IMG/VR virus record: IMGVR_UViG_3300031576_001130
Coordinates: 1 to 45,225 of that record
From: a virus
Length of the DNA stretch: 45,225 bases
Strand: one strand, 5' to 3'
Shown: piece by piece, positions 10,006-43,705 of the stretch
Layout of the letters: each line of letters starts with the position of its first letter
Numbering within the stretch: the first letter of the stretch is position 1
Translations under genes and position numbers: made by a program
Notes under the pieces: generated by a model
The model's input: only the letters and a program-made list of their open reading frames with translations
What the model was told of the DNA's origin: nothing
Databases searched by the model: none

Positions 10006-10326
10006 ATGCAAAAGCGCAAAGCAATCCGACAAGGTGACGTGCTGCTGAGGCCCTGCAAGCCACGCGCAGGACTCAGCCCCCACATCGAGCACATCCTCGC
10101 TCGCGGTGAGGCCACGGGCCACCACCACGTTGTGATCGACGGCGAGGTCCTGGTCGATGAGCGCGGCAAGCTCTTCGTCCGAGCGACGCCAGGAACGAAA
10201 CTGCGGCACCAGGATGAGCGCGGGGCCGTGGCGGACCACCTTCCACTCGTCGTGCCGGCCGGGGACTACGAGGTTTTGATCGAGGAGGAGTACACGCCGC
10301 ATGGCTTCAGGCCAGTGGTGGACTGA
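10006..10326 (+). CDS. Conserved phage early protein (QGDVLL/GEATGHHH type)
   Basis: A 106-residue protein with three marks of a widespread phage family of unknown function: RQGDVLLRPC at the start, ILARGEATGHHHVV in the middle, and LPLVVPAGDYEVLIEEEYTP near the end. The His-rich GHHH suggests metal binding. An AAAGGAAC site precedes the ATG after a 46-bp gap, one of the few gaps in this operon, so translation starts afresh here. It overlaps the next gene by one base (TGATG). Confidence 0.65.
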   Translation: MQKRKAIRQGDVLLRPCKPRAGLSPHIEHILARGEATGHHHVVIDGEVLVDERGKLFVRATPGTKLRHQDERGAVADHLPLVVPAGDYEVLIEEEYTPHGFRPVVD

Positions 10327-11219
10327 TGTTTCCTGCTGACGCGCAGGCGATCATCAATCGGCTTCAGAGGGCGACCAGATGCCATCCGGCGCTGGATCGG
10401 CCAAAGGTGGAAGTCGCGATCGCCGAGCATCTCCAGCTTCTAGCACAGACGTCGCTACCAGTGAGATGGGTTGATGATGCCGAGGATGGCTACCACCACG
10501 TCATCGAGATCGCCCTGAGCGCCGCCCTGAGCGCCGCCCTGAGCGCCGCCCTGAGCGCCGCCCTGAGCGCCGTCGAGAGCGCCGCCCTGAGCGCCGCCCT
10601 GAGCGCCGCCCTGAGCGCCGCCCTGAGCGCCGCCCTGAGCGCCGCCCGGAGCGCCGCCCGGAGCAATTCGGCGATCAATAAGGCCTGCGGGATCTGGATG
10701 CCGTTCCTGAACGCCTACGAGGCTGGGCTATGGCTCTACTGGGTGATGCCCGCCGAGGTGGTGGCCGTTCCGAGGCCGGTGTTGCATCTTCTCGAGCACC
10801 GCCTCCACTGCGCGGATGGCCCGGCCGTGCATTGGCCAAACGGCAGGGCCTACTGGTTTTGGCGTGGCGTTCAGGTGGAGCGTGACTGGATCGAGCGCCC
10901 GCAGAGCCTCGACCCCAAGATGGCTCTGACGGAGTCCAATACCGAGAGGCGGCGCTGCCTCTATGAGATCCTCGGCTACGAGCGGATCCTCGCCGCGGTC
11001 AGCGCGAAAAGGGTCGCCATGGACGACTTCGGTGAGCTGTGGGAGGCGCAGCTCGATGATGATCGCGGCCGCCCCGCGCGTTTTGTGCGGGTCAAGTGCC
11101 CGAGCACTGGGAGGGTGTACGTCAACCGCGTGCGGCCAGAGGTGAAGACGGCGCGTGAAGCTGTGGCAAGTCGATGGCGGCTGAAGCCTGAGCGGTACGT
11201 CCTGGGGGCGGAATCGTGA
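10326..11219 (+). CDS. DUF6745-like protein with an ALSA-repeat helix
   Basis: A 297-residue protein. Residues about 63-114 are 13 tandem four-residue units (mostly ALSA, with VESA, ARSA and ARSN), which would form a long Ala-rich helix. The C-terminal half has RLHCADGPAVHWPNGRAYWF, a MDDFGELWEAQL block and FVRVKCPSTGRVYVNRVRP, a pattern seen in DUF6745-type proteins of unknown function. The repeat DNA is a 12-bp minisatellite, so the length may vary between phages. The ATG overlaps the previous stop. Function unknown. Confidence 0.6.
   Translation: MFPADAQAIINRLQRATRCHPALDRPKVEVAIAEHLQLLAQTSLPVRWVDDAEDGYHHVIEIALSAALSAALSAALSAALSAVESAALSAALSAALSAALSAALSAARSAARSNSAINKACGIWMPFLNAYEAGLWLYWVMPAEVVAVPRPVLHLLEHRLHCADGPAVHWPNGRAYWFWRGVQVERDWIERPQSLDPKMALTESNTERRRCLYEILGYERILAAVSAKRVAMDDFGELWEAQLDDDRGRPARFVRVKCPSTGRVYVNRVRPEVKTAREAVASRWRLKPERYVLGAES
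10512..10667 (+). repeat. 12-bp coding minisatellite, 13 units
   Basis: Thirteen consecutive 12-bp units of GCCCTGAGCGCC type lie in frame inside 10326-11219. Unit 6 is a variant (VESA) and the last two are CGG variants (ARSA/ARSN). Because each unit is four codons, gain or loss by slippage keeps the frame. The reverse strand reads through the same block without stops, which is a by-product of the repeat. Confidence 0.9.
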
Positions 11220-15179: not shown

Positions 15180-16469
15180 GTGGCTACTCGCTTCTACTTC
15201 CCCGCCAGCGAGCTGTCGCCAGTATCTCCATCGTACGACGCCGGCTGGTCGAGCAGTGCGCAGGGCAAGCGGCGACGGTTGGCGCACATCAAGGCGAGCA
15301 GCACGGTCGCCACCGATGGTAACATCACACTCCCAGGAGCCGCCGGCGAAAAAAATCTCGACCGTCAGTACATTTCCGACCCCATCAAGGGCGGAACCAT
15401 TTCTGGCACCCTGAAGTGCCAAATTATGGCCAAGGAGTCGGCCACAAACGACAACGTTGACGAAGGGTGGTTGCAGGTCTGCGTGGTCTCTGGCGACGGC
15501 CAGACGTCCCGCGGAATTCTGCTCTCAATCGGGCACTATGGGATTACGAGTGAGTACTCCACAGGCGCACGTAACAAGACGCTAGCAAATGGAGACACCG
15601 TCAGCTCGGTGACTGCCCAAGATGGAGACCGCATAGTCGTCGAGATGGGCCACTCAAACTCCACCGCTGGCACCTCGATCGGCGCCACCTTCTACTACGG
15701 CGAGAACGGCACCGACCTGCCGGAATCTGAGGTTGGGACGACAGGTGCAGGCTGGATCGAGTTTTCGGCCACCATTGTGATGATGAAGTCTCGGTTTTGG
15801 TTTCCGAAAGACGAGCCGGCCGCCGTATCTCCGGGATATGATACCTGGACGGACACCTCGGAAGCTCTCAGGCGCCGGTTAGCGCACGTGAAAGGAGCGA
15901 GTGCACTCGGGGCTGGCTCTTTGATCACGCTGTCTGGCGCAGCCGGAGCTGCCGACCTTGATCGGCAGTATGTATCCGATCCCATCAGAGGAAGGTTGAT
16001 CTCTGGATGGTGCAAATGCCAACTCATAGTGTACCAGCAGCAGGTTGCTGACAACCTCGATCAGCTTTGGCTGGCAGTCAGAGTTGTGTCCGAAGACGGA
16101 GCAACGCTACGCGGAGAGCTGCTAAATCGCTTGCACTACGGCATCACTAGCGATTATGGGGTTGGATTTCTCGGCCGGCTAAACAAAACCGCCGCCGATG
16201 GCGACCTCATGACGTCAGTAACTGCGCTGGATATGGATCGAATTGTAGTCGAGCTAGCTCATTCTAATGTCAATACCGGCTCAGTTCCCCAAGGCATCGG
16301 CTACTGGGGTGAGGCCGGCGACGACCTTCCCGAGGACGAGACGACCACAAGTGGCGCCGGATGGATTGACCTCATCATTGGCGAGCCCATCACTATGTTC
16401 AGCACCATTTCTGAGTTGAGGCAATTCGAGAACCCAATTCTTCGAAAGCGAAGACCGAAACCCTACTAA
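15180..16469 (+). CDS. Virion-associated-type protein, two tandem ~200-residue copies
   Basis: A 429-residue protein made of two diverged copies of one domain. Copy 1 starts RFYFPASELSPVSPSYDAGW and copy 2 SRFWFPKDEPAAVSPGYDTW (near 203). Both contain DRQYxSDPIxG, a Cys-containing beta segment, HYGITSxY, a QDGDRIVVEMGHSN-like stretch, DLPExE and GAGWI. The domain is beta-rich and recurs as a putative structural protein in metagenomic phages. Copy 2 begins with Met-Met (15780, 15783) in frame, as if two genes had fused. GTG start. It heads a block of structural-looking genes before the terminase. Its role is unknown; a head or tail decoration is plausible. Confidence 0.6.
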   Translation: MATRFYFPASELSPVSPSYDAGWSSSAQGKRRRLAHIKASSTVATDGNITLPGAAGEKNLDRQYISDPIKGGTISGTLKCQIMAKESATNDNVDEGWLQVCVVSGDGQTSRGILLSIGHYGITSEYSTGARNKTLANGDTVSSVTAQDGDRIVVEMGHSNSTAGTSIGATFYYGENGTDLPESEVGTTGAGWIEFSATIVMMKSRFWFPKDEPAAVSPGYDTWTDTSEALRRRLAHVKGASALGAGSLITLSGAAGAADLDRQYVSDPIRGRLISGWCKCQLIVYQQQVADNLDQLWLAVRVVSEDGATLRGELLNRLHYGITSDYGVGFLGRLNKTAADGDLMTSVTALDMDRIVVELAHSNVNTGSVPQGIGYWGEAGDDLPEDETTTSGAGWIDLIIGEPITMFSTISELRQFENPILRKRRPKPY

Positions 16470-17377: not shown

Positions 17378-19105
17378 GTGTACCCCACCTGGTGGTACCA
17401 GCAACGATCTGAGCCGATCCCCGACCTGGCGGCACCGCCGCCCGTTGCCTGGGGATGGCAGTCTGCCTTGCCGGCACCGAGACGCCTGGGCCTGTCGGTG
17501 GCGCTCCTGCTCTCGACATCCGTCGCCGTTGTGGTTCCGGTCTCGGCGGTCGGGCCCCTGCCCGAGCTCGCACGGCCCCAGGTTGCTCGTCGTGCCACTC
17601 GGGTAGACCTTGGTGGCGGAGTGGTCTACGATTCTTCCGCCGACAGCGCCGCGGCATGGGGCGTCGACCTGGAAGTGCCACGTAGGCGTCCACCGCGGCG
17701 AGAGGATCCGCCGCAGGTCCTCCACCAGGAGGCGGCCGCCCCTGTCGTGTGGGGGTGGGGGATGGACCTGTGCCGTGCCCCGCCGCGCGTGCCGCTGCGC
17801 GTGCCACCGGTGGTGGTCCCGGTGGTGGGCGAGGCCGCTCCCGCGATCGAGTGGGGATGGCTCGGGGGGCTTGAGATCCCGCGCCAACGGTTCCGCTCAG
17901 CAGCGGAGTCAGAAAGCTGTCCTGCGAGCGTTCAGGGGCAGGCCTGGGGCTGGCAACAAGATCTTCCGGCACCACGCCGACAGCAGCGGATTGCCACGGC
18001 GCAGCCTGGTGCTCTTGGTGCGGCGCCCGACGCTCTCGGATGGCAAGCCCCGTTGGCTCAGCCGGCCTTACGGCCACCGCGCCACCGGGAGCCATCGGCC
18101 GAGCCGCCGGCGGTTACGGGTCAGGCCTGGGGCTGGCAGGGAATGCTGGCGAGTCCGCGACGTCCCGGCGCCGTCCAACGCGACCAAGGCCAGGTGCCGG
18201 TCGTCCAGGCTGCTGCGGCCCCAGTGGCCTGGGGCTGGGCTGGCGAGCTGTCAAGACCGGCCATCAGGCTCCGGCGGCTGGCAGATCCCCAGGCGACTCC
18301 CACGGCTGTCACGGGCCAGGCCTGGGGGTGGCAACAGGACCCGCCGGAACCTCGCCGGCGTCGAGACAGCGCTGCTGCACCTGGCACACTGGGCGCTTCG
18401 ACCGACGCTCTGGGGTGGATGGCCGAGCTCGCGCGCCCTCCGGGGCGCAGGCCTCGTCATGCGGATCCGCCAACCACGCCCCCAGCGGTCACTGGTCAGA
18501 CGTGGGGCTGGGCTGCTCCCCTGGGCGTGCCACGGCGCCCGGCGAAGGTGGCACGTGAGCCCGCATCGGCGCCGATCACCGCTGCTGCCGCCCCAGTGGC
18601 CTGGGGCTGGGCTGGCGAGCTGACTCGGACTCTGCGCCGGCGCCCATCCCCCCTGGTGGAGCTGGTCGTACCACCTGCAGTCGGTGGTCAGGCCTGGGGG
18701 TGGCAGGCGCCTTTGGCCTCGCCCATCCCTCGCCAGCGCGTGCGTGCGGCCGACCAGGGCACCCAGGTCAGGGAGACCACCGACGGGCTTGGCTGGGCTG
18801 CTCCCCTGGCCGTGCCTGCCCTACTCCGGAGCCGCCTCCTCTGGCAAAGCGCAGGCGCGCCCATGGTCTTGCTGCCGCCCGAAGTGATGGCCTGGGGCTG
18901 GGGGCCGCCTCTCGAGGTCCCGAGACGTGCCTCCCGCGCCAAGGCGGAGGAGATCGTGGCGGTGATCCACGCACCCGGGGCATTCACCGCGGGCAACTCC
19001 CGCAAGTGGACAGCGAGGCCACCGGGGACAGGGTGGGTAGCACCGTTCGGAGGGACTGGATGGAAGACTCGACCAGCAGGAACCAATTGGAAGGCTGTGA
19101 AGTGA
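17378..19105 (+). CDS. WGW-repeat protein (about 15 units), unknown
   Basis: A 575-residue protein built almost wholly from about 15 units of about 31 residues. Each has a core like AWGWxxxLxxPRR, or DALGWxAPLAxP, followed by a variable Pro/Ala/Arg stretch. From unit 5 on, four unit types recur in order (GQAWGWQ; DALGW; GQAWGW; APVAWGWAGEL), giving a super-repeat of about 124 residues. The C-terminus differs (TGW, TNW motifs between Pro/Gly). There is no signal peptide. GTG start. Its place in the structural-looking block suggests a virion component such as a fibre or anchoring ladder. The same AGEL-type motif ends the tail peptidase at 34310-34840. No known family is assigned. Confidence 0.6.
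   Translation: MYPTWWYQQRSEPIPDLAAPPPVAWGWQSALPAPRRLGLSVALLLSTSVAVVVPVSAVGPLPELARPQVARRATRVDLGGGVVYDSSADSAAAWGVDLEVPRRRPPRREDPPQVLHQEAAAPVVWGWGMDLCRAPPRVPLRVPPVVVPVVGEAAPAIEWGWLGGLEIPRQRFRSAAESESCPASVQGQAWGWQQDLPAPRRQQRIATAQPGALGAAPDALGWQAPLAQPALRPPRHREPSAEPPAVTGQAWGWQGMLASPRRPGAVQRDQGQVPVVQAAAAPVAWGWAGELSRPAIRLRRLADPQATPTAVTGQAWGWQQDPPEPRRRRDSAAAPGTLGASTDALGWMAELARPPGRRPRHADPPTTPPAVTGQTWGWAAPLGVPRRPAKVAREPASAPITAAAAPVAWGWAGELTRTLRRRPSPLVELVVPPAVGGQAWGWQAPLASPIPRQRVRAADQGTQVRETTDGLGWAAPLAVPALLRSRLLWQSAGAPMVLLPPEVMAWGWGPPLEVPRRASRAKAEEIVAVIHAPGAFTAGNSRKWTARPPGTGWVAPFGGTGWKTRPAGTNWKAVK
17450..18940 (+). repeat. Coding repeat array of the WGW protein
   Basis: Degenerate ~93-bp units encode W-G-W cores. 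A 32-base stretch starting at 18219 recurs exactly at 18591, which sets a 372-bp (124-codon) higher-order period and points to growth by segmental duplication of four-unit blocks. Confidence 0.8.
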
Positions 19106-19106
19106 T

Positions 19107-19403
19107 ATGAGGATCGCTGCCGAAGTCTGCGAGAAGACGCCGTATGAAAAGCTGCCGTACGATTTTGACTTCACCGACGTCCTTTTGACTGGCGAGGTGA
19201 TCGCCGCCAGCCCGCCCCCGACGGTCACGGATACACCCGCGAGTCAGCTCTTACTATCGGCTCCTGTGCTCGCCACCCCAAAGGTGCAGGTAGTCATCGA
19301 CGGGGGCAATGTGGGGGTGGACTACACGCTGAGCTGCAAGGTGACCACGAACCTCGGATACGAAAGGGAGTGCATTGGGCAGCTCAAGGTGCTCAGCACG
19401 TAG
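19107..19403 (+). CDS. Small fibre-domain-like protein
   Basis: A 98-residue protein. KLPYDFDFTDVLLTGEVIAAS followed by VQVVIDGGNVGVDYTLSCKVTTNLGYERECIGQLKVL matches a small Ig-like domain common as single-gene proteins near phage structural genes (a set-up line, then a 'tau-type' Thr/Ser region, then a final strand pair). It starts 1 bp after the WGW gene stops. A terminator follows. Probably a minor virion protein. Confidence 0.55.
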   Translation: MRIAAEVCEKTPYEKLPYDFDFTDVLLTGEVIAASPPPTVTDTPASQLLLSAPVLATPKVQVVIDGGNVGVDYTLSCKVTTNLGYERECIGQLKVLST

Positions 19404-22554: not shown

Positions 22555-24158
22555 GACTGGCCAGCCGCTCCCTGTCGCTCCCGGAACGGGTTGGACTGGG
22601 CCTCGATCGCGCGCTCGCGATCGTCGCACCCGTCTGGGCGCGAAGGCGGTTGGTCGCCCGCGCCCAGCTCCATGTCATCCATCGCGCCATTTCTGCCGGC
22701 CGTCCCGACCGGACAAGCGCCATCCGACAGCCGTCGAAGGCGGGGCCGGTTGAGAAATCGCGGAAGGAGTTGGTTCCGACCCGAGCCCAGGCCCGTGAGC
22801 TCTACCGGCTGAACCCCTACGCGCGCGGGGTCGTCAACTCCATCGTGGCCAACCTCATCGGTTGCGGCATCCGCCCCCAGGCGCGTGTGATGAAGCCGAA
22901 GCTCAAGTCGCCTGACGAGGACTTCAACGACCTTGCGGAGGAGGAGTGGAAGTTCTGGACGGACACCTCTGGTCCGTCAGGACAGGAGAACTACTACGAG
23001 CAGCAACGACTGATCCAGCGGGAGCTACTGGTGCCCGGGGAAGTGCTGCTCCACTTCACGACTCCAGGAGACGGCCGGCGAGTGCCCTTCGCGGTGGAGG
23101 TGCTGCCGGCTGAAAGACTGGCCGATCACCTCGACGAGCAACGGAAGGACGGGACGAGAATTATCCAGGGCATCGAGTTCGATGCCTCCGGCAAGCGCGT
23201 TGCCTACTGGCTGTACAAGAATCACCCCGGGGATTCCTACCGCCTTGCGGACAAGCCGCAGCGTGTCCCGGCGGAGTCTGTCCGGCACCTATACGAGGAG
23301 CTGGAGCCTGGGCAAGTGCGCGGCATCACGCGATTCCTCACGTGCGCCGGCGCTTTCGAGGCGGTGTTGCAGCTTCTCGACTTCTCGCTCACCCGTGCTC
23401 GCATCGCCAGCGCCTTCGCGCTGATGATCACCGACGATGGGACAGGCATCCGCCTCGTCAAGACGGGCGATGAGTCGGACGATGAGGATGAGGATGAGAA
23501 TGAGCTGGCGCACTTCGAGGGCGGGATGCTTTTCCGAGGTAAGCCGGGGCAGGACTTGAAACATGCCGGTCCGGCGATCCAGGACACGAACCTCGAGGCG
23601 TTCATGACGGTCATCTTGCGGATGATCGGTCGCGGCCTCGACGTCGCCTACGAGCTGGTGTCCCGCGACCTGTCAAAGGTGACGTACCTCAGTGCACGCC
23701 AGGGCGAGAACCAAGACCGCCGTCATTGGGAGCCGCAGCAGGAGTTCTTGAACCGCGTCGCCAACTGTCCAGTCTGGAATGAGTTCATCAAGACCGCGGG
23801 CATCGCGGGACGGCTGCGGGTGGGGACGCCACCAGAACGCTTTTGCGCCGTGGACTTCGTCCGCCCAGGATGGGACTGGATCGACCCCGAGAAGGACGCC
23901 AAGGCTGACGTGATGATGATCCAGGCGGGGCTCGAAAGTCCGCTCGAGGCGATCGCGCGTCGCGGTCGCGATCCATTCAAGGTGCTCCGCGAAGTGGCGC
24001 AGTTCAAGGCGTGGGCAAAAGAGCTTGGGCTCGAGCTGAGCGTCTTCGCCCCACCGAAGCCAACGCCGGTGCAAGTGCCCGAGAAAGAGGAGTTGGAGGA
24101 TGCCACCGAAGACGAAGAAGAAGCAACAGATAGCGCAACGGCCGCCCAAGCAGCTTAG
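22551..24158 (+). CDS. Portal protein, lambda gpB family
   Basis: A 535-residue portal. Typical marks are ARELYRLNPYARGVVNSIVANLIG, EEEWKFWTDTSG, IQRELLVPGEVLLHFT, VEVLPAERLADH and RGITRFL. An acidic block (DESDDEDEDENELAHFEGG) and an acidic C-terminal tail (EEKEELEDATEDEEEATDS) are present. Twelve copies would form the vertex ring through which DNA enters. The 3' end overlaps the protease-capsid gene by 59 bp, more than usual in this operon. GTG start. Confidence 0.92.
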   Translation: MRLASRSLSLPERVGLGLDRALAIVAPVWARRRLVARAQLHVIHRAISAGRPDRTSAIRQPSKAGPVEKSRKELVPTRAQARELYRLNPYARGVVNSIVANLIGCGIRPQARVMKPKLKSPDEDFNDLAEEEWKFWTDTSGPSGQENYYEQQRLIQRELLVPGEVLLHFTTPGDGRRVPFAVEVLPAERLADHLDEQRKDGTRIIQGIEFDASGKRVAYWLYKNHPGDSYRLADKPQRVPAESVRHLYEELEPGQVRGITRFLTCAGAFEAVLQLLDFSLTRARIASAFALMITDDGTGIRLVKTGDESDDEDEDENELAHFEGGMLFRGKPGQDLKHAGPAIQDTNLEAFMTVILRMIGRGLDVAYELVSRDLSKVTYLSARQGENQDRRHWEPQQEFLNRVANCPVWNEFIKTAGIAGRLRVGTPPERFCAVDFVRPGWDWIDPEKDAKADVMMIQAGLESPLEAIARRGRDPFKVLREVAQFKAWAKELGLELSVFAPPKPTPVQVPEKEELEDATEDEEEATDSATAAQAA

Positions 24159-26259
24159 ATCACGCACGCCGGGCGAGGTTCTCCGTCGGATGATGGCGAT
24201 CCGTGCCGAGGACCTGGATTCGGAGAGCCGCGAGTTGGAGGTCAGCTTTTCGAGTGAGACGGACAAGATTCGCTTTTGGGGCACGCCGGAGATTCTCCTC
24301 CATGAGGATGGCTCGATGGACATCAAGCCCCTCCGCGATGTCGGCGCCGTCCTCCTGAACCACGACCCCGACCGCATCGTGGGGCGACCTGAGGACATCC
24401 GCCTCGACAGGGATGAGCGAAAGGGGCGCGCCCGGATCGTCTTCGATAGCGACGAGGAGTCCGAACGGGTGCTGGGCAAGGTCCGCAGCGGCAGCCTCCG
24501 CGGGGTGAGCGTAGGCTTCGCGGTCGACCGTTGGCAGATCCTCGATGAGGGAGAGTCCTGGGAAAGTCCCGAGGGAAGGACCTTCGATGGGCCGGCCTAT
24601 CTGGCTACCCAGTGGCGAGTGGTGGAATTCAGCCTGACCCCCATCCCAGCCGACGCGTCTGTCGGGGTGGGCAGAAGTAGTGACGCGAGCCGGGATGACC
24701 CCGGTCAGGGAACACTGGAGGAATACTGTATGGACCCGAAGGTGCGAGCCAAGCTCGAAAAGCTGGGCCTGTCGAAGACGGCGAGTGACGAGGAGGCAAT
24801 CGACTTCCTCGACCAGCTCGAGACAAAGAAGAGGACCGACCCCCCGGAGACGCCACCCAAGCCTCCGGACGAAGGCGGAGAACCTCCGCCATCGGCCGAG
24901 GCGAGGCGAGCGGCTGGCGCCGCCGTGGCGGCTGAGCGCGAGCGTGTGAGCGACATCCGGGAGATGTGCGGGCATTACGAGTGCACGCGCGAGCTTGCCG
25001 ACGAGTTGATCCAGAAGGGCACAACCGTTGCCATGGCGCGGAAGGTGGTCATCGACCGGCTGGCAAAGGAGCGCCCGGTCCTCTCCGGTCCCCGTCGGAT
25101 CGAGTTCGGCGAGGAAGAGCGGACGAAGTTCGCTCGGACTGCCGAGGACTGGCTCGCACATCGGGTGGGTCGCCTCCGCGATCCGGACAAGGACAAGCTC
25201 GCCGGGAGGCTCAATGCCATCCGCTCGATCGACTGCTTCAGCCTCCTCGACCTCGCGCGCGAAAGCTGCCGTCGGGCGAACATCCATGTCGCCGGCGCCT
25301 CACGGGATGAGCTGATAAAGCGCGCGATGGCGCACTCAACCTCGGACTTCCCCAGCATCCTCGAGAACGTCGCCCAGAAGGCGCTGCTCCAGTCCTGGGC
25401 CGAGGCGCCGTCGACCTGGGAGCCGCTCGCGAAGGTGATCAACGCCGTCGACTTCAAGTCGATGAGCCGCGTCAAGCTCGGTGACGCCGGCGACTTGGTG
25501 AAGACTCTGGAGCTGGTGCCGATGTCCCAGGGCTCTCTCGCGGAGGCAAAGGAGACTTACGCGATCGACACCTACACGAAGCGCTTCGGCATTTCGCGCC
25601 AGGCGATCATCAACGACGACCTCTCGGCGTTCGACAGCATCCCCGGGCTCATGGGCGCGGCCGCACGTCGTCTGCCCAACAAGCTCTTCTGGGATCTTGT
25701 CATCTCTGCGGCCGGGATCGGGCCGACAATGGCAGAAGATGCCACCGCGCTTTTCGCCACAACGCATACGAGTGGCTCCAATTACCTGACCGGCGCCGGC
25801 ACTGACGCGATCAACGTGGCGAACCTCGGTGCCGTCAAGGCTCTCATGCGCAAGCAGAAGGGTCTCGCCGCGGCTAACGAGGTGGCTCCGATCCTCAACA
25901 TCATGCCCTCTTTCCTGATCGTCCCCGCGGCAAAGGAGACGGAGGCTCTGCAGTTCATCTCCTCGACCGTCGATCCGGCGAAGTCGAACATGACTCCGAA
26001 CCCATTCGCCAGCGCCATCCAGGTCATCGTCGAGCCGCGGCTCGACGGCGGCACCAACGGCTTGACCGCCTGGATCGTCGTCGCCTCTCCGAGCGCCATT
26101 GCCGGCGCGGAGGTGGCGTTCTTGAACGGCCAGCGCGAGCCGACCCTGATCCGCGTCGATGGCACGGACGTCCTCGGTATCGAATGGGGCCTCTACCTCG
26201 ACGTCGGCGTGAAATTCGTCGAGCACCGCGGCTGGGCCCGCTCGAAGGGCGCCGCGTAG
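24100..26259 (+). CDS. Prohead protease - scaffold - major capsid protein fusion
   Basis: A 719-residue fusion. Residues ~1-200 are an HK97-type prohead serine protease: His88 in LLNHDPDRIVG, Ser137 in SLRGVSVGF and the closing WRVVEFSLTPIPADASVGV. Residues ~211-370 are acidic/Pro-rich and helical, like a scaffold or delta domain. The rest is a capsid protein with the Mu gpT-like pattern SDFPSILENVAQKALL, VDFKSMSRV, ISRQAIINDDLSAFD and a C-terminal GLYLDVGVKFVEHRGWA. An in-frame ATG at 24730 has GGAGG 8 nt upstream and would yield the scaffold-capsid part alone (509 residues). Such fusions are known in other tailed phages. Confidence 0.9.
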   Translation: MPPKTKKKQQIAQRPPKQLRSRTPGEVLRRMMAIRAEDLDSESRELEVSFSSETDKIRFWGTPEILLHEDGSMDIKPLRDVGAVLLNHDPDRIVGRPEDIRLDRDERKGRARIVFDSDEESERVLGKVRSGSLRGVSVGFAVDRWQILDEGESWESPEGRTFDGPAYLATQWRVVEFSLTPIPADASVGVGRSSDASRDDPGQGTLEEYCMDPKVRAKLEKLGLSKTASDEEAIDFLDQLETKKRTDPPETPPKPPDEGGEPPPSAEARRAAGAAVAAERERVSDIREMCGHYECTRELADELIQKGTTVAMARKVVIDRLAKERPVLSGPRRIEFGEEERTKFARTAEDWLAHRVGRLRDPDKDKLAGRLNAIRSIDCFSLLDLARESCRRANIHVAGASRDELIKRAMAHSTSDFPSILENVAQKALLQSWAEAPSTWEPLAKVINAVDFKSMSRVKLGDAGDLVKTLELVPMSQGSLAEAKETYAIDTYTKRFGISRQAIINDDLSAFDSIPGLMGAAARRLPNKLFWDLVISAAGIGPTMAEDATALFATTHTSGSNYLTGAGTDAINVANLGAVKALMRKQKGLAAANEVAPILNIMPSFLIVPAAKETEALQFISSTVDPAKSNMTPNPFASAIQVIVEPRLDGGTNGLTAWIVVASPSAIAGAEVAFLNGQREPTLIRVDGTDVLGIEWGLYLDVGVKFVEHRGWARSKGAA
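24717..24732 (+). promoter_or_regulatory. Internal ribosome site and start within the protease-capsid gene
   Basis: GGAGG (24717-24721), an 8-nt spacer and ATG 24730 lie in frame with the fusion, just after the protease domain. Initiation here would give MDPKVRAKLEKLG ... without protease, the likely major form if capsid must outnumber protease. This recalls lambda Nu3 starting inside gene C. Confidence 0.6.
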
Positions 26260-33586: not shown

Positions 33587-33605
33587 CGTGTTCGGTCCGG
33601 ACACG
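33587..33605 (+). promoter_or_regulatory. Hairpin after in-frame UGA (possible readthrough or SECIS-like element)
   Basis: CGTGTTC-GGTCC-GGACACG folds into a 7-bp stem (one G-T pair) with loop GGUCC, starting 14 nt after the UGA at 33570. The loop begins 22 nt after the UGA, inside the spacing described for bacterial SECIS elements, and has the GGUC seen in the E. coli fdhF loop. GC-rich sequence makes chance hairpins common, so this is only suggestive. Confidence 0.3.
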
Positions 33606-34313
33606 GCCCAGGACTTCATCGTCGGGCGCACCGGGAACGGCGAGCAGAAGCGGCGGTTCGGCTGGTGGACCCTCAACGCCCTGCGCGCCACCGCTTGGGA
33701 CGTCGATCAGTCGACGCCCGACATGCTGCACATGGAGGCGGAGGGGGATGGTATCGACTGGTCGGCTGGCATCCACGATGGGCCCTTCGGCTTCAAGAGG
33801 ATCACGGGGGATTTTGACGTCTACTCTCTCGTCGAGCCCATTGCCGACCGCATCGGGTTCATGTTCGGCCTCTGCTGCCAGGAGGACGCCGACCTCTTCG
33901 ACTCCTGGGTGTTTGCCGGCTGGACGCTGAAGAATGACGAGCAGCGGGCGCTGCGCTTCGCCTCTGCCGAGGATTCCGTCGCCGGCGCCAAGGTGGATCT
34001 TACGGGGGTGACGGACTCCATCCTCCGGCTCACCCGCGCCGGCGACGTCTTTACAGCCCACTACAGCGCTGACGCCGTGTCGTGGGTGCAGCTCGCGCAA
34101 CGGACGGTCGTGCTCGACGCGGCAGTCCGGCTCGGCTTCCTCCTCGCCGCTCCTGGCATCGAGCATTCGGCCATCGGCGGTATTGCCCACTACCTGCAGT
34201 TCCGCTCGGGTGGTCTGAGCACTTGCGACCGCACGCTCGACGGCCCCTTGGGCTGCCGCGTGCACGACAACGCGCACCGCATCCGCATGATGCCAGGGAT
34301 TCCCCGGCGATGA
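33588..34313 (+). CDS. gpL-like C-terminal part with inserted lectin/glucanase-like domain
   Basis: In the same frame as 33060-33572, 15 bp past its stop. From GTG 33588 it would be 241 residues, but there is only a weak ribosome site. Most of it (about 40-215) is a DUF1349/concanavalin-like beta-sandwich: GDFDVYSLVEP, IGFMFGLCCQ, DSILRLTRAGDVFTAHYSADAVSWVQLAQ, VRLGFLLAA. The end STCDRTLDGPLGCRVHDNAHRI is the gpL-type Cys motif. The lectin-like domain has been inserted inside the Fe-S domain, between the Cys pairs. It may bind cell-surface sugars at the tail tip. Confidence 0.65.
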   Translation: MFGPDTAQDFIVGRTGNGEQKRRFGWWTLNALRATAWDVDQSTPDMLHMEAEGDGIDWSAGIHDGPFGFKRITGDFDVYSLVEPIADRIGFMFGLCCQEDADLFDSWVFAGWTLKNDEQRALRFASAEDSVAGAKVDLTGVTDSILRLTRAGDVFTAHYSADAVSWVQLAQRTVVLDAAVRLGFLLAAPGIEHSAIGGIAHYLQFRSGGLSTCDRTLDGPLGCRVHDNAHRIRMMPGIPRR

Positions 34314-34840
34314 AGCTCCAGGCCCTGTCAATCAACGCTTTCAGCTTCCCGACCTATCTCGTCGAGTACGAGGACATGGTGGGCTGGCGCTACGCGACGG
34401 CCGGTCGCTCCCTCGCCGGCGTCGACTGCGCCGGGGTGATCCTCGAGATCTACCGCCGGGCCGGCCTCGGCCTGCCTGACCCAGCGCGTGGACTGATTAC
34501 GGAGTTCGGCATGGCATGGGAGAAGGTCTCCGCGGCCGACACCCTGTACGACCTCCTGCGCTTTCGGCCCGACACCGGCGGCCTCGCTGGCCAGGACCAC
34601 CTCGGGGTCCTGGTGCGGCCCGACGTCGTCCTCTCCGCGACCAGGGTCCTGGGTGTCCACGCTCGTCCCCTCGCGGTCTACGCGCGCATCCCGCGCGTCG
34701 AGAACTGGCGTCTGAAGGCATCGGTCATTCCGATCGGACCTGCCGTACCGCCAGACATATGGGGCTGGGCCGGCGAGCTGGCAACACCAGTTTCCCCATC
34801 TCCAGTTGGCAGCGATTTCGGTTGGGGGGCTACCCTATGA
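34310..34840 (+). CDS. NlpC/P60-type tail tip peptidase (gpK-like) with WGW C-terminus
   Basis: A 176-residue protein. Catalytic Cys40 lies in GVDCAGVILEIYRRAGL and His97 in GQDHLGVLVRP, as in NlpC/P60 peptidases; a His near 117 may be the third residue. Such tail-tip enzymes cut cell-wall peptides on infection. Residues about 149-176 (DIWGWAGELATP ... FGWGATL) carry the same WGWAGEL and GW motifs as the repeat protein at 17378-19105. No gpI-like gene is recognised. Start ATG 34310 overlaps the previous stop; the end overlaps the tip protein gene by ATGA. Confidence 0.8.
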   Translation: MKLQALSINAFSFPTYLVEYEDMVGWRYATAGRSLAGVDCAGVILEIYRRAGLGLPDPARGLITEFGMAWEKVSAADTLYDLLRFRPDTGGLAGQDHLGVLVRPDVVLSATRVLGVHARPLAVYARIPRVENWRLKASVIPIGPAVPPDIWGWAGELATPVSPSPVGSDFGWGATL

Positions 34841-39925: not shown

Positions 39926-42274
39926 ATGACCGTCCCCGCCCACACCATCTACACCGGCGAGTCGCCGGACTTCAAAGCGCGGCCGCGCGCGACCTTCCGG
40001 CACACGTTCCGTCCGACGCTACTCACCCGCATCGGCGACTCGAATGGCTGGAAGAGCGTGTGGGACAACACCATCATCCCGCGGGCGAACACGCTGAAGG
40101 GGCAGTCGGACGCCTCGCTCACGACCTCCGGCGTTCCGCTCGGCAAGCTTGGGGTGCTGGCGATGGCCGGCTACCTGACGGAGACGGGGCGGCCAGCGAA
40201 CGGGTACAAGGACGTGGCGATCCGCGCCTGCAAGTACCTCGCCGGACTCCCGCTCGCCTCGTCGAACGACGACCGGCGGTACCGCGCGGAAACGATGGCG
40301 ATGGTACCTGACATCCTCTGGGATGACCTGACGAGCAGCGAGCGGGATCTGCTTGCCAGCGCTGGCGTGACGCACATCGACAACATGACCCGTCGCGACG
40401 ACGAGGAGATGGATGGTTGGAGCGGCAACGACCAGGCGGCGGCGCTATACATCGAGCTGGTGTTCCATGGTCACGCGAGCGTCGCGAGTCAGATATCGAC
40501 ACGACTGACCAACACGCTGAACTTTCTCTACGGCGCGGTGGCCAACCGTGGCCGGATCGAGATGGACCGCTACCAGCATGCCGATGGTGGGAGCGAGAAG
40601 GGACACCATTACGACCTCCACGGCTTCGAGGGCACGATCCGCGGCTTGTGGTTTCTGAAGAACGCTACCAGCCTCGATCCGTGGACGACGGAGTCATCAT
40701 GGCTCTCAAAGATGTGGGAGTGGCTCTTGTGGAAGGTCCACGGCGGCGTCTATGGCATGGACTACGAGAGCTTGAACGACACGGCCCGTATCTCCGCTCC
40801 GTTGTTTCACAACTACCACCGCTGGTGCACTGCCATCCTGGCGAACCAGTACCCGAGCCCCGGGGGCAACCAGGGCGGGCAGATGCTCAGGTGGATGTAT
40901 GACCAGCGGAGTGCCCTCGACAGCACCTTTGCCGACAGCCTGATCTGGGACATCGTATTCCTCGACCGCGCGGGAGTAACGCCGGTCGAGCCGAAGAATG
41001 CAACGACGCCCCCCCCGCGGTCGCGCATGATGAAGCCGCCGGGCATCTACTACTACCGCCAGACGAAACGCGGGAGCGGCAAGCATGCTTGGGAGTATCC
41101 AGACGTCGCGACCATCCGCGTCAAGGCGGGGCTCCGCTATTGGCTCGGCCACGGGCACGTCGATGCCGGCTGCGTCCGCATGGCCGTCAAGGGCGATCCG
41201 GTGCTGCTCTCGCCAGCCGGTTACTATGATGACTTTGGCGGGTCGCACGCTCTGAATGCTTACCAGCGCTCATGGCTGCAGAGCCTCGTACCCCTGGTCA
41301 AGGATCCGACCCAGAGCTACATCTACGAGAGCAACACGGCGGTCGTCAACGACGGCGGGCAGCACTTCAAGAAGTACTCGGGGTTCGTCTCACCCTCGAA
41401 GGAGTACGACCCGAACTTCGTCTACGCCATGCTGAACGACGCCGGCGGCGAGGCGTGGCGCCGTGCGGAGCGCTTTGACAAGGTGGCCGAGGACCTCACG
41501 AAGGGCGTGTTCCTCGTCGCCGACCTGCGGAACGCCTACCGCCGGCGCCACACCGATGCCCAGCGCTGCCCCATCCTCACCGCCAAGTACCTGATCATCG
41601 AACCCACAGCGGCGAACGGCCTCGACTGGCCGGCGATGCTTTACTACGCCAGGATCAAGAAGACGGACCCCAACTGGGTGACGCATATCCCCCTCCATTC
41701 CGCCATCGCCTACACGACCACGAGCTACGGCTTCCACACCAAGGGTTTCTACAACGTCGGCAAGCTCTGGGTCGACGTGCGAAACGTCAGTCAGTACACG
41801 CTCATCAACAACACGCCCGGCAGCCCGCTTGACGCCAACGGCTATGGACCCAATCAGTTCAAGGTTTCTGGGGCCGGCACAAACTACCCGCCGAGCGAGG
41901 CCGCAGGCTCCCGCCATTTGCCGGACCTGAAGAAACACTCGATGTACGTCGAGAAAACGGTCCGGGCGGAGGAGGAGCACTACGTGATGTTCCTCATGCT
42001 CTCGGAGGCGGCCGACGCGGAGCCGGTGCCGACCAGGTCCTGGCACACGGACGCCGCATACCCCGACTACTACGGCCTCCATCTCGGGAGCGAGGACTTC
42101 CTCGTCCACCGTACGGCTGACCTCGCGATCATGGGCGGCGCGGTCGACACGACGCCGCCGGCGGAGGTCACGGGGATGACGTTGCCGCCGCGCAATCAGG
42201 CGATCCTCGCCAAGTGGACTGATCCCGCGGACTCGGATTACGACAAGGCAAAGGTCTTCTACAGGACAAGCTGA
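39926..42274 (+). CDS. Heparinase II/III-like putative polysaccharide lyase (tail depolymerase)
   Basis: A 782-residue protein. The N-terminal ~350 residues are helical with many Trp/His/Tyr, like an alpha/alpha toroid (YQHADGGSEKGHHYDLHGF, LFHNYHRWC). Next comes YWLGHGHVDAGCVRMAVKGDPVLLSPAGYYDDFGGSH (about 405-441), which strongly resembles the H-x-H-x-D-x-G and following lines of heparinase II/III-fold lyases; His409, His411, Asp413 and His441 are visible. The C-terminus (about 742-782) is the first half of an fn3 domain and stops abruptly. It would degrade acidic polysaccharide of capsule or matrix during infection. Catalytic residues are not proven. Confidence 0.6.
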   Translation: MTVPAHTIYTGESPDFKARPRATFRHTFRPTLLTRIGDSNGWKSVWDNTIIPRANTLKGQSDASLTTSGVPLGKLGVLAMAGYLTETGRPANGYKDVAIRACKYLAGLPLASSNDDRRYRAETMAMVPDILWDDLTSSERDLLASAGVTHIDNMTRRDDEEMDGWSGNDQAAALYIELVFHGHASVASQISTRLTNTLNFLYGAVANRGRIEMDRYQHADGGSEKGHHYDLHGFEGTIRGLWFLKNATSLDPWTTESSWLSKMWEWLLWKVHGGVYGMDYESLNDTARISAPLFHNYHRWCTAILANQYPSPGGNQGGQMLRWMYDQRSALDSTFADSLIWDIVFLDRAGVTPVEPKNATTPPPRSRMMKPPGIYYYRQTKRGSGKHAWEYPDVATIRVKAGLRYWLGHGHVDAGCVRMAVKGDPVLLSPAGYYDDFGGSHALNAYQRSWLQSLVPLVKDPTQSYIYESNTAVVNDGGQHFKKYSGFVSPSKEYDPNFVYAMLNDAGGEAWRRAERFDKVAEDLTKGVFLVADLRNAYRRRHTDAQRCPILTAKYLIIEPTAANGLDWPAMLYYARIKKTDPNWVTHIPLHSAIAYTTTSYGFHTKGFYNVGKLWVDVRNVSQYTLINNTPGSPLDANGYGPNQFKVSGAGTNYPPSEAAGSRHLPDLKKHSMYVEKTVRAEEEHYVMFLMLSEAADAEPVPTRSWHTDAAYPDYYGLHLGSEDFLVHRTADLAIMGGAVDTTPPAEVTGMTLPPRNQAILAKWTDPADSDYDKAKVFYRTS

Positions 42275-42278
42275 CACC

Positions 42279-42665
42279 ATGCCCATCTTCACCGTCTCCT
42301 GGGGAACGAGCACCACCCTCCACGCGGCAGGCACGCTCGCCGCCGGCGCGTCGGTCAACGATAGCCTGGACCTCGCCACCGCTGGCATCTACGCCGCCGC
42401 GATCCAGGCGGAGGTGCAGTTCCCTAGCGGCACCGACGCCAACGACCTGGAGATCCTCGTCTACAGTTCGTCCGATGGCGGCAGCAACTTCGACACCGAG
42501 CCCCTGATGCGCTTCAGCATTCCATTTGTGGCCAGCACGACGAAGCGGAAGAGCTTCACCATCCAGGGCGTGCCGTTCGCCCGCGTGACGATGAAGAACA
42601 ACACGGCGCTGACGCTCACGAGCGTCTCGAGCAAGTACCAGGGTCTCAAGCAGGCGAGCGCGTGA
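42279..42665 (+). CDS. Small beta-rich virion-associated protein
   Basis: A 128-residue protein: FTVSWGTSTTLHAAGTLAAGASVNDSLDLATAGIYAAAIQAEVQFPSGTD and a C-terminal VTMKNNTALTLTSVSSKYQGL. It looks like a compact jelly roll, similar in type to 39442-39909. It lies between the two genes that hold the halves of an fn3 domain, so it may have come in with the insertion that split it. Function not recognised. Confidence 0.5.
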   Translation: MPIFTVSWGTSTTLHAAGTLAAGASVNDSLDLATAGIYAAAIQAEVQFPSGTDANDLEILVYSSSDGGSNFDTEPLMRFSIPFVASTTKRKSFTIQGVPFARVTMKNNTALTLTSVSSKYQGLKQASA

Positions 42666-43705
42666 TCTACCCGCACTACAAGCACAAGCCGTCACCCTGG
42701 GCTCTTGTCCCGGGGTTGGTCGATCCTCGCCACCTGGACCTTTGGCGTGACTGTGTGCTTGCGATACCATTCTGGCAGGGAGGCAAGTACCTCAACGACG
42801 CGGGCCCGCATCATCTCGATGGCTACCTCGACACCGAGCTGAGTCCCATCACCTCTTGGGTCGCGACCCCCTACGGGGTCGGGATCCGCTTTACCGGAAC
42901 GGATTCGGACTCGCGGGTGGTCATCGCAGATCCACCCTCCGACCTCCTCGATGGCACGAACAAGCTTTCGCTGGAGGTCCTCTTCAGGCCGTCGGTCATC
43001 GACGCTGTGCGGCACGGCCTGATCGGGAAGTACAACACAGCGGCGAACTTTCGTTCCTGGCGGTTTTACATCGATGCCGATGAGCTGGCGCTCCAGGTGT
43101 CGACGGATGGTGCGGGCAACGAGATCCAGATCACAACGGCGGCGAACCTCGTGGCCGGCACGTGGTACCGTGCGGTCGCCACGTTCGACGCCGGCGTCTT
43201 CAAGGTGTGGCTCGACGGTAAGCCGCAAGCGGTCGACGCCAACTTTGCCGCCACCACCATCTTCGCCGGCAACGAGCCCTTCTGGATCGGCACCCGGTCC
43301 GACGCCCTGACCTTCACCGGCGACATCGCGAGCGTCCGCGTCTGGCGCGGCCGCGCGCTCAGTGCACAGGACGTGCAGCTCATCGAGGACGCGCCCTGGG
43401 CGATGTACGACCCGCCGCTGTTCCATCCATCCTTGGCGGTCTTGCACTCGGGTGGGGCAGCTCCGGGCCCGTGGATGGAGTACGGCCAGGTGGCAAAGGG
43501 CGTCCAGGAGCTGCTGCTCCAGGGCCTCGTCAACGGCACGAGCTACGACGTGCAGATCAAGACGGTGGACATGTCGGGCAACGTCAGCGCCGGCAACACC
43601 TTAGCGGCCGCCACGCCAGTCGCCGGGGCGAAGGCTTGGCTGGGGCGATTTCTGCGGCGCCGGGGTTTAATTCGCGCATGGCCCGGAAAGAAAAGGCCGC
43701 GATGA
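42662..43705 (+). CDS. LamG/concanavalin-like protein ending in half an fn3 domain
   Basis: A 347-residue protein. Residues about 30-245 form a LamG-type beta sandwich: CVLAIPFWQGGKYLNDAGPHHL, GIRFTGTDSDSRVVI, KLSLEVLFRPS, AGTWYRAVATFDAGVFKVWLDGK and DIASVRVWRGRALSAQDV. Such domains bind carbohydrates on phage tails. Residues about 270-320 (WMEYGQVAKGVQELLLQGLVNGTSYDVQIKTVDMSGNVS) are the second half of an fn3 domain whose first half ends the lyase-like protein. The basic tail RRRGLIRAWPGKKRPR follows. GTG start overlapping the previous stop. Confidence 0.7.
   Translation: MIYPHYKHKPSPWALVPGLVDPRHLDLWRDCVLAIPFWQGGKYLNDAGPHHLDGYLDTELSPITSWVATPYGVGIRFTGTDSDSRVVIADPPSDLLDGTNKLSLEVLFRPSVIDAVRHGLIGKYNTAANFRSWRFYIDADELALQVSTDGAGNEIQITTAANLVAGTWYRAVATFDAGVFKVWLDGKPQAVDANFAATTIFAGNEPFWIGTRSDALTFTGDIASVRVWRGRALSAQDVQLIEDAPWAMYDPPLFHPSLAVLHSGGAAPGPWMEYGQVAKGVQELLLQGLVNGTSYDVQIKTVDMSGNVSAGNTLAAATPVAGAKAWLGRFLRRRGLIRAWPGKKRPR

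What the first reader, a model, noticed from the sequence alone, without database searches (positions are those of the whole stretch)
17378..19105. Phage protein built from about 15 WGW repeats
The 575-residue product is nearly all repeats of about 31 residues with an invariant Trp-Gly-Trp (or Gly-Trp) core, a Leu five residues on and a Pro-Arg-Arg. I know no characterised domain with this unit. Its place in a beta-rich, virion-like block before the terminase suggests a structural or sugar- or wall-binding ladder.
Basis: partly seen in the sequence, partly recalled or inferred. Interest (0 to 1): 0.8.

Follow-up and report, generated by a model that had tools for sequence, protein, structure and literature searches.

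The report
Phage tail-region tryptophan-motif repeat protein
A phage gene, placed directly before a tail-fibre adaptor gene, encodes a protein made of about 15 copies of a short tryptophan motif, and one copy of that motif is also stuck onto the end of the same phage's tail-tip wall-cutting enzyme, which suggests an undescribed docking or binding tag used on the virus particle.

Summary
ORF 17378-19105 (575 aa) carries 14 Gly-Trp units (11 WGW, 3 LGW) plus one WGV unit, period 29-35 residues. Gly and Trp are invariant, Leu is at +5 (13/14) and Pro at +8 (12/14). Block duplicates show dS 1.48 against dN 0.37, so the protein sequence is selected. No Pfam, PHROG, NCBIfam, PDB or GenBank-phage match was found. 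(1) The unit recurs once more in this phage, as a C-terminal extension (PPDIWGWAGELATP...FGWGATL) of the tail-tip NlpC/P60 peptidase (34310-34840). Two cultured phages with the same tail-gene order lack that extension. (2) The next gene (19107) is a Gp77 fibre-tail adaptor (PF23148; PDB 8jou). A 101-kb phage with a look-alike array flanking a glycosidase has the same array-to-Gp77 order. Two more phages have look-alike arrays that end in a putative Ig-like domain. These arrays share no profile-detectable homology, so they may be convergent. AlphaFold2 gives the unit no secondary structure (pLDDT 60, shallow alignment). Best reading: an extended, multivalent Trp-motif docking array of the tail appendage apparatus. 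The main rival is a glycan- or wall-binding ladder. Expression, virion location and ligand are untested.

The parts
17378..19105 (+). WGW-repeat protein, 575 aa; array of 15 units, mostly 29-35 aa, core [AV]-[WL]-G-W-x3-L-x2-P-R-R
17915..18292 (+). four-unit block, copy A (units 6-9)
18293..18664 (+). four-unit block, copy B (units 10-13); 60% aa identity to copy A, dN/dS about 0.25
18995..19102 (+). C-terminal tail of a different short type, about GNSRKWTARPPGTGWVAPFGGTGWKTRPAGTNWKAVK
   Evidence: sequence
19107..19403 (+). Gp77-type fibre-tail adaptor (PF23148), start codon 1 nt after the WGW gene's stop
34310..34840 (+). tail-tip NlpC/P60 (C40) peptidase, phrog_329 minor tail protein; Cys40 and His97 conserved with Rhizobium and Bradyrhizobium phage enzymes
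34715..34837 (+). C-terminal extension of that peptidase bearing the WGW unit (WGWAGEL at 34760, FGWGATL at 34817)

Best explanation
The 575-aa protein is a virion-associated, mostly extended tether in the tail-appendage module. Each 31-residue unit is a short linear docking motif (WGWxxxLxxPRR, about 12 residues) plus a variable Pro/Ala/Arg spacer. Fifteen motifs give a multivalent array that clamps onto repeated Trp-accepting pockets of a virion structure, most likely in the tail or fibre-adaptor apparatus. The single unit at the end of the tail-tip NlpC/P60 peptidase is the same tag and brings that enzyme to the same partner. Shown: the repeats, selection on them, the second copy on the peptidase, and adjacency to a Gp77 adaptor. 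Inferred: presence in the virion, an extended state, docking as the action, and the partner's identity.
For: Conservation sits in a short core (G, W 14/14; L +5 13/14; P +8 12/14) with near-random spacers and variable period, as in a linear-motif array. Purifying selection acts between block copies. AlphaFold2 finds no secondary structure (pLDDT 60, pTM 0.14). The same unit occurs as a lone tag on a tail-tip protein (E 1.3e-5 among 652 window ORFs, 4e-4 among about 20,000 ORFs), with WGWAGEL identical in 20 of 21 bases, and the tag is absent from the two related-order phages compared. The gene abuts PF23148/Gp77, whose solved relative connects an adhesin to the tail collar in phage GP4. A second phage repeats the order look-alike array then Gp77, although PF23148 is uncommon (5 of 385 genomes; 62 of 50,697 phage records with one query).
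Against: No virion proteomics and no partner known. AlphaFold2 without a deep alignment cannot prove disorder. The look-alike arrays in other phages are not detectably homologous and were found by searching for WGW, so their resemblance in the core is partly by selection. In the named phages examined, Gp77 genes are not preceded by such arrays. An enzyme carrying the motif fits substrate binding just as well.
Confidence: 0.4

Rival explanations
1. The units bind a polysaccharide or the cell wall through exposed Trp pairs (an aromatic ladder), so the array is an adhesin stalk and the tag targets the peptidase to its substrate.
For: The tagged protein is a wall peptidase. In the look-alike phage the array flanks an apiosidase-like glycosidase. 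The window phage also has a LamG lectin protein. Trp platforms are the usual sugar contacts (general knowledge).
Against: No match to any binding-repeat family. The +5 Leu, +8 Pro and Arg constraints are not explained by a bare aromatic platform. Spacing varies from 29 to 35. Gly between the two Trp and the Pro-rich unit do not resemble the hairpin units of choline-binding repeats.
Confidence: 0.27
2. The units fold into a regular beta-solenoid or hairpin stack that forms a rigid fibre shaft.
For: Near-constant 31-residue period and invariant Gly/Trp positions; tail-fibre neighbourhood.
Against: AlphaFold2 gave no strands; 14% Pro and only a 12-residue conserved core; a lone unit occurs as a tag.
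Confidence: 0.12
3. The Arg-rich array (net charge about +24) acts on nucleic acid, for example as a packaged DNA-binding protein, and only happens to sit next to tail genes.
For: 64 K+R against 40 D+E, Arg after the core; it lies upstream of the terminase.
Against: The shared unit is on a tail-tip peptidase and the coupled gene is a fibre adaptor; the look-alike proteins are less Arg-rich.
Confidence: 0.08
4. A spacer with little function: repeats spread by duplication and composition, the tag copied by recombination.
For: Block duplication is evident; no relatives detected in the collections searched with the protein itself.
Against: dN/dS about 0.25 between block copies, with the core retained while spacers diverge.
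Confidence: 0.08

Closest known systems
GW/WG-repeat Argonaute-binding proteins (TNRC6/GW182, 'AGO hook'; PMC9262622)
   Same: Trp-Gly motifs spaced along an otherwise low-complexity chain, giving a multivalent platform; a works-like comparison only
   Different: No Argonaute in evidence here; phage structural gene; longer regular unit with fixed Leu, Pro, Arg; no sequence relation tested or claimed
Choline-binding / cell-wall-binding repeats (Pfam CW_binding_1) and GW modules
   Same: Tandem GW-containing units on phage or bacterial proteins, associated with a wall hydrolase
   Different: No Pfam match; unit is 31 aa, Pro-rich, and lacks the second aromatic strand of those repeats
Gp77 fibre-tail adaptor module (PF23148; GP4 8jou; LSH1 gp34-36, PMC13243795)
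   Same: The gene following the array is a member; in LSH1 a large protein with poorly predictable stretches lies beside a GP4-adaptor-like protein
   Different: Known Gp77 loci read here have no WGW array upstream; LSH1 gp34 was not compared by sequence
Look-alike arrays in IMG/VR phages G001 (L119/L335), G002 (L200/L337), G003 (L209/L340)
   Same: 30-37-aa units with GW core, Pro then Arg/His, in virion-type proteins; G001 has the same array-Gp77 order
   Different: No profile-detectable homology to the window units; G001 array includes a glycosidase; G002 and G003 end in a putative Ig-like domain

Membership tests
Choline/cell-wall-binding repeats and GW modules | match to the Pfam models | tested here: not met
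   no Pfam family at E<=0.1 for the 575-aa protein
Choline/cell-wall-binding repeats and GW modules | about 20-aa hairpin units with paired aromatics | tested here: not met
   unit 29-35 aa, Pro 14%, no predicted strands
GW-repeat Argonaute-hook proteins | binding of Trp motifs to PIWI-domain pockets | not testable with these tools
   no binding assay; only the motif spacing is comparable
Gp77 fibre-tail adaptor (gene 19107-19403 only) | PF23148 above its curated cut-off | tested here: met
   52.7 bits against cut-off 27; 8jou_D E 3.7e-4
Phage C40 NlpC/P60 tail-tip peptidase (gene 34310-34840) | position between DUF1833 protein and J, with catalytic Cys and His | tested here: met
   phrog_329 E 8e-6; Cys40 and His97 invariant in the alignment with two phage enzymes; gene order as apart from one inserted gene; Pfam score 20.1 is below the cut-off of 23
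Any described family for the WGW unit | match in Pfam, PHROGs, NCBIfam or PDB sequences | tested here: not met

The most novel reading that the evidence does not exclude
The phage uses a private linear-motif code: one WGW docking tag, repeated 15 times in a tether and appended singly to the tail-tip lysin, targets different proteins to the same virion pockets. Unrelated phages have evolved equivalent Trp-motif arrays next to the same fibre adaptors.
Probability: 0.25. Interest if true: 0.7.

Novelty: new variant of a known kind. Interest (0 to 1): 0.52.

Why it matters
If right, it would describe a so far unnamed repeat unit in phage tails and a simple means of recruiting enzymes and fibres by a shared peptide tag. 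Even if the units bind glycans instead, they would be an undescribed wall- or sugar-binding repeat. The peptidase tag makes the question directly testable, because a single unit can be deleted and assayed.

Tried and rejected
A direct protein search in GenBank phages and a back-translated scan of IMG/VR with the full protein gave nothing. A two-copy WGW DNA pattern was swamped by chance and low-complexity hits. The triple-WGW scan gave 52 stretches, of which three phage proteins (G001-G003) had the GW-Pro-Arg layout. The same scan of bacterial genomes (119 stretches, truncated) gave none with that layout; its in-frame hits were Gly/Trp-rich, DGDGWGWDG-type and out-of-frame low-complexity sequences. 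Stricter patterns added no new array. A remembered alphaproteobacterial repeat (GWFQPLSEPVR) and a remembered TKPTTSW repeat were searched for and not confirmed; the one hit for the latter was a pentapeptide-repeat gene, apparently read in another frame. Neighbour-based scans with Gp77 and the peptidase found no relatives in IMG/VR, and terminase relatives mostly begin at the terminase, so they say nothing about the upstream gene. Homology between the window units and the other arrays was tested and not found. The AlphaFold2 model of the G003 C-terminal domain is poor (pLDDT 45), with only weak Ig-like matches, so 'Ig-like' is tentative. Nothing matching the unit was found in papers.

Full report
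The ORF is real and as described. It runs from a GTG at 17378 to the stop at 19105 on the + strand and gives 575 residues. Aligning on the Gly of each Gly-Trp gives 14 units with Gly and Trp invariant, Trp (11) or Leu (3) before the Gly, Leu at +5 in 13, Pro at +8 in 12, and Arg favoured at +9 to +13; one further unit reads WGV. Shuffling the protein's own residues never approaches this. The rest of the unit is close to random between copies, and spacing in the main array varies from 29 to 35. A four-unit block of about 375 nt has been duplicated. Between block copies dS is 1.48 and dN 0.37, and differences concentrate at third codon positions, so the frame is right and the protein is under purifying selection.

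The phage around it has small and large terminase subunits, a lambda-family portal, a fused prohead protease-capsid protein, a tape measure protein, DUF1833, an NlpC/P60 peptidase and J, in the tail order seen in Rhizobium phage RHph_Y3_1 and Bradyrhizobium phage ppBdUSDA122-1 apart from one inserted gene. The sequence is an IMG/VR record of 45,225 bases with no larger genome behind it. The WGW gene lies upstream of the terminase. The ATG of the next gene (19107-19403) starts one base after its stop. That gene is a member of PF23148, the Gp77 fibre-tail adaptor, well above the cut-off, and matches a chain of PDB 8jou, which connects an adhesin to the tail collar in phage GP4 as cited in PMC13243795. 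Related domains in named phages are annotated as hypothetical, minor tail or virion-associated proteins.

The main new observation is a second copy of the unit in the same phage. A profile of the units finds one more protein in the window, E 1.3e-5 among 652 ORFs and 4e-4 among about 20,000 ORFs from all loci then held. It is the NlpC/P60 tail-tip peptidase at 34310-34840, whose last residues read PPDIWGWAGELATPVSPSPVGSDFGWGATL. WGWAGEL is identical to two units of the array and shares 20 of 21 bases with them. The peptidases at the same place in the two named phages lack this extension, while the catalytic Cys and His are shared. So the unit works, or at least survives, as a single C-terminal tag on a tail protein.

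No described family contains the unit: Pfam, PHROGs, NCBIfam and PDB sequences all give nothing, nor does tblastn against 50,697 phage records. A DNA pattern of three WGW codon groups at unit spacing, scanned through IMG/VR, found three other phages with long arrays of GW-then-Pro-then-Arg/His units of about 30-37 residues. In G001 (101 kb) the array reads in frame across the contig ends, so the record is probably circular. There it flanks an apiosidase-like glycosidase and stops just before an ORF with two Gp77 domains, the same order as in the window. The G002 array follows a minor tail gene, and the G003 array lies a few genes from a major head protein. Both end in a similar domain that may be Ig-like. 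The window profile does not recognise these arrays, nor theirs the window's, so they may be convergent. They were also chosen for having WGW. The features not selected for are the Pro/Arg layout, the virion-type contexts and the Gp77 neighbour. Gp77 is uncommon (5 of 385 genomes; 62 of 50,697 phage records), yet follows two of the four arrays. The named Gp77 loci that were read lack an array upstream, so Gp77 does not require one.

AlphaFold2 on a four-unit block, with 13 aligned rows, gave no secondary structure (pLDDT 60, pTM 0.14). With so shallow an alignment this is only weak evidence, but with the short conserved core, variable spacers and 14% Pro it favours an extended chain of linear motifs over a folded shaft. 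From these points the best explanation is a multivalent Trp-motif docking array of the tail-appendage module, with the peptidase carrying one copy of the same tag. The closest rival, glycan or wall binding by the Trp pairs, is nearly as good: the tagged protein is a wall peptidase and the G001 array carries a glycosidase. Nothing computed here separates the two cleanly. What it works like, a GW-motif platform such as TNRC6 (PMC9262622), is analogy only; no tested repeat family took it as a member.

Noticed in passing
window 24100-26259: One 719-aa ORF combines prohead protease S78 and major capsid protein domains (phrog_4523, PF04586, PF25209).
   Followed up: no
window 33588-34313: A DUF1349-like gene sits between the DUF1833 gene and the C40 peptidase; the Rhizobium and Bradyrhizobium phages have no gene there.
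   Followed up: partly
window 15180-16469: 429-aa protein with two tandem similar domains (RFYFPASELSPVSPSYDAGW... and RFWFPKDEPAAVSPGYDTW...), no family match.
   Followed up: no
window 39926-43705: After J come a 782-aa protein with no family match (possibly a polysaccharide-degrading enzyme, from appearance only) and a LamG lectin protein ending in a very basic tail.
   Followed up: no
window 10511-10664: Twelve-base tandem repeat, 12.8 copies, inside ORF 10326-11219 (DUF6745).
   Followed up: no
L336:15541-19032 with L335:1-492: Phage protein of about 1,328 aa with GW arrays on both sides of an apiosidase-like catalytic domain, next to tandem Gp77 domains.
   Followed up: partly
L200:3-3029 (-) with L337:18437-19999 (-): Phage protein of about 1,198 aa with roughly 20 units W-x-N-x-G-W-E-x-Q-PPPP-H, no family match.
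   Followed up: partly
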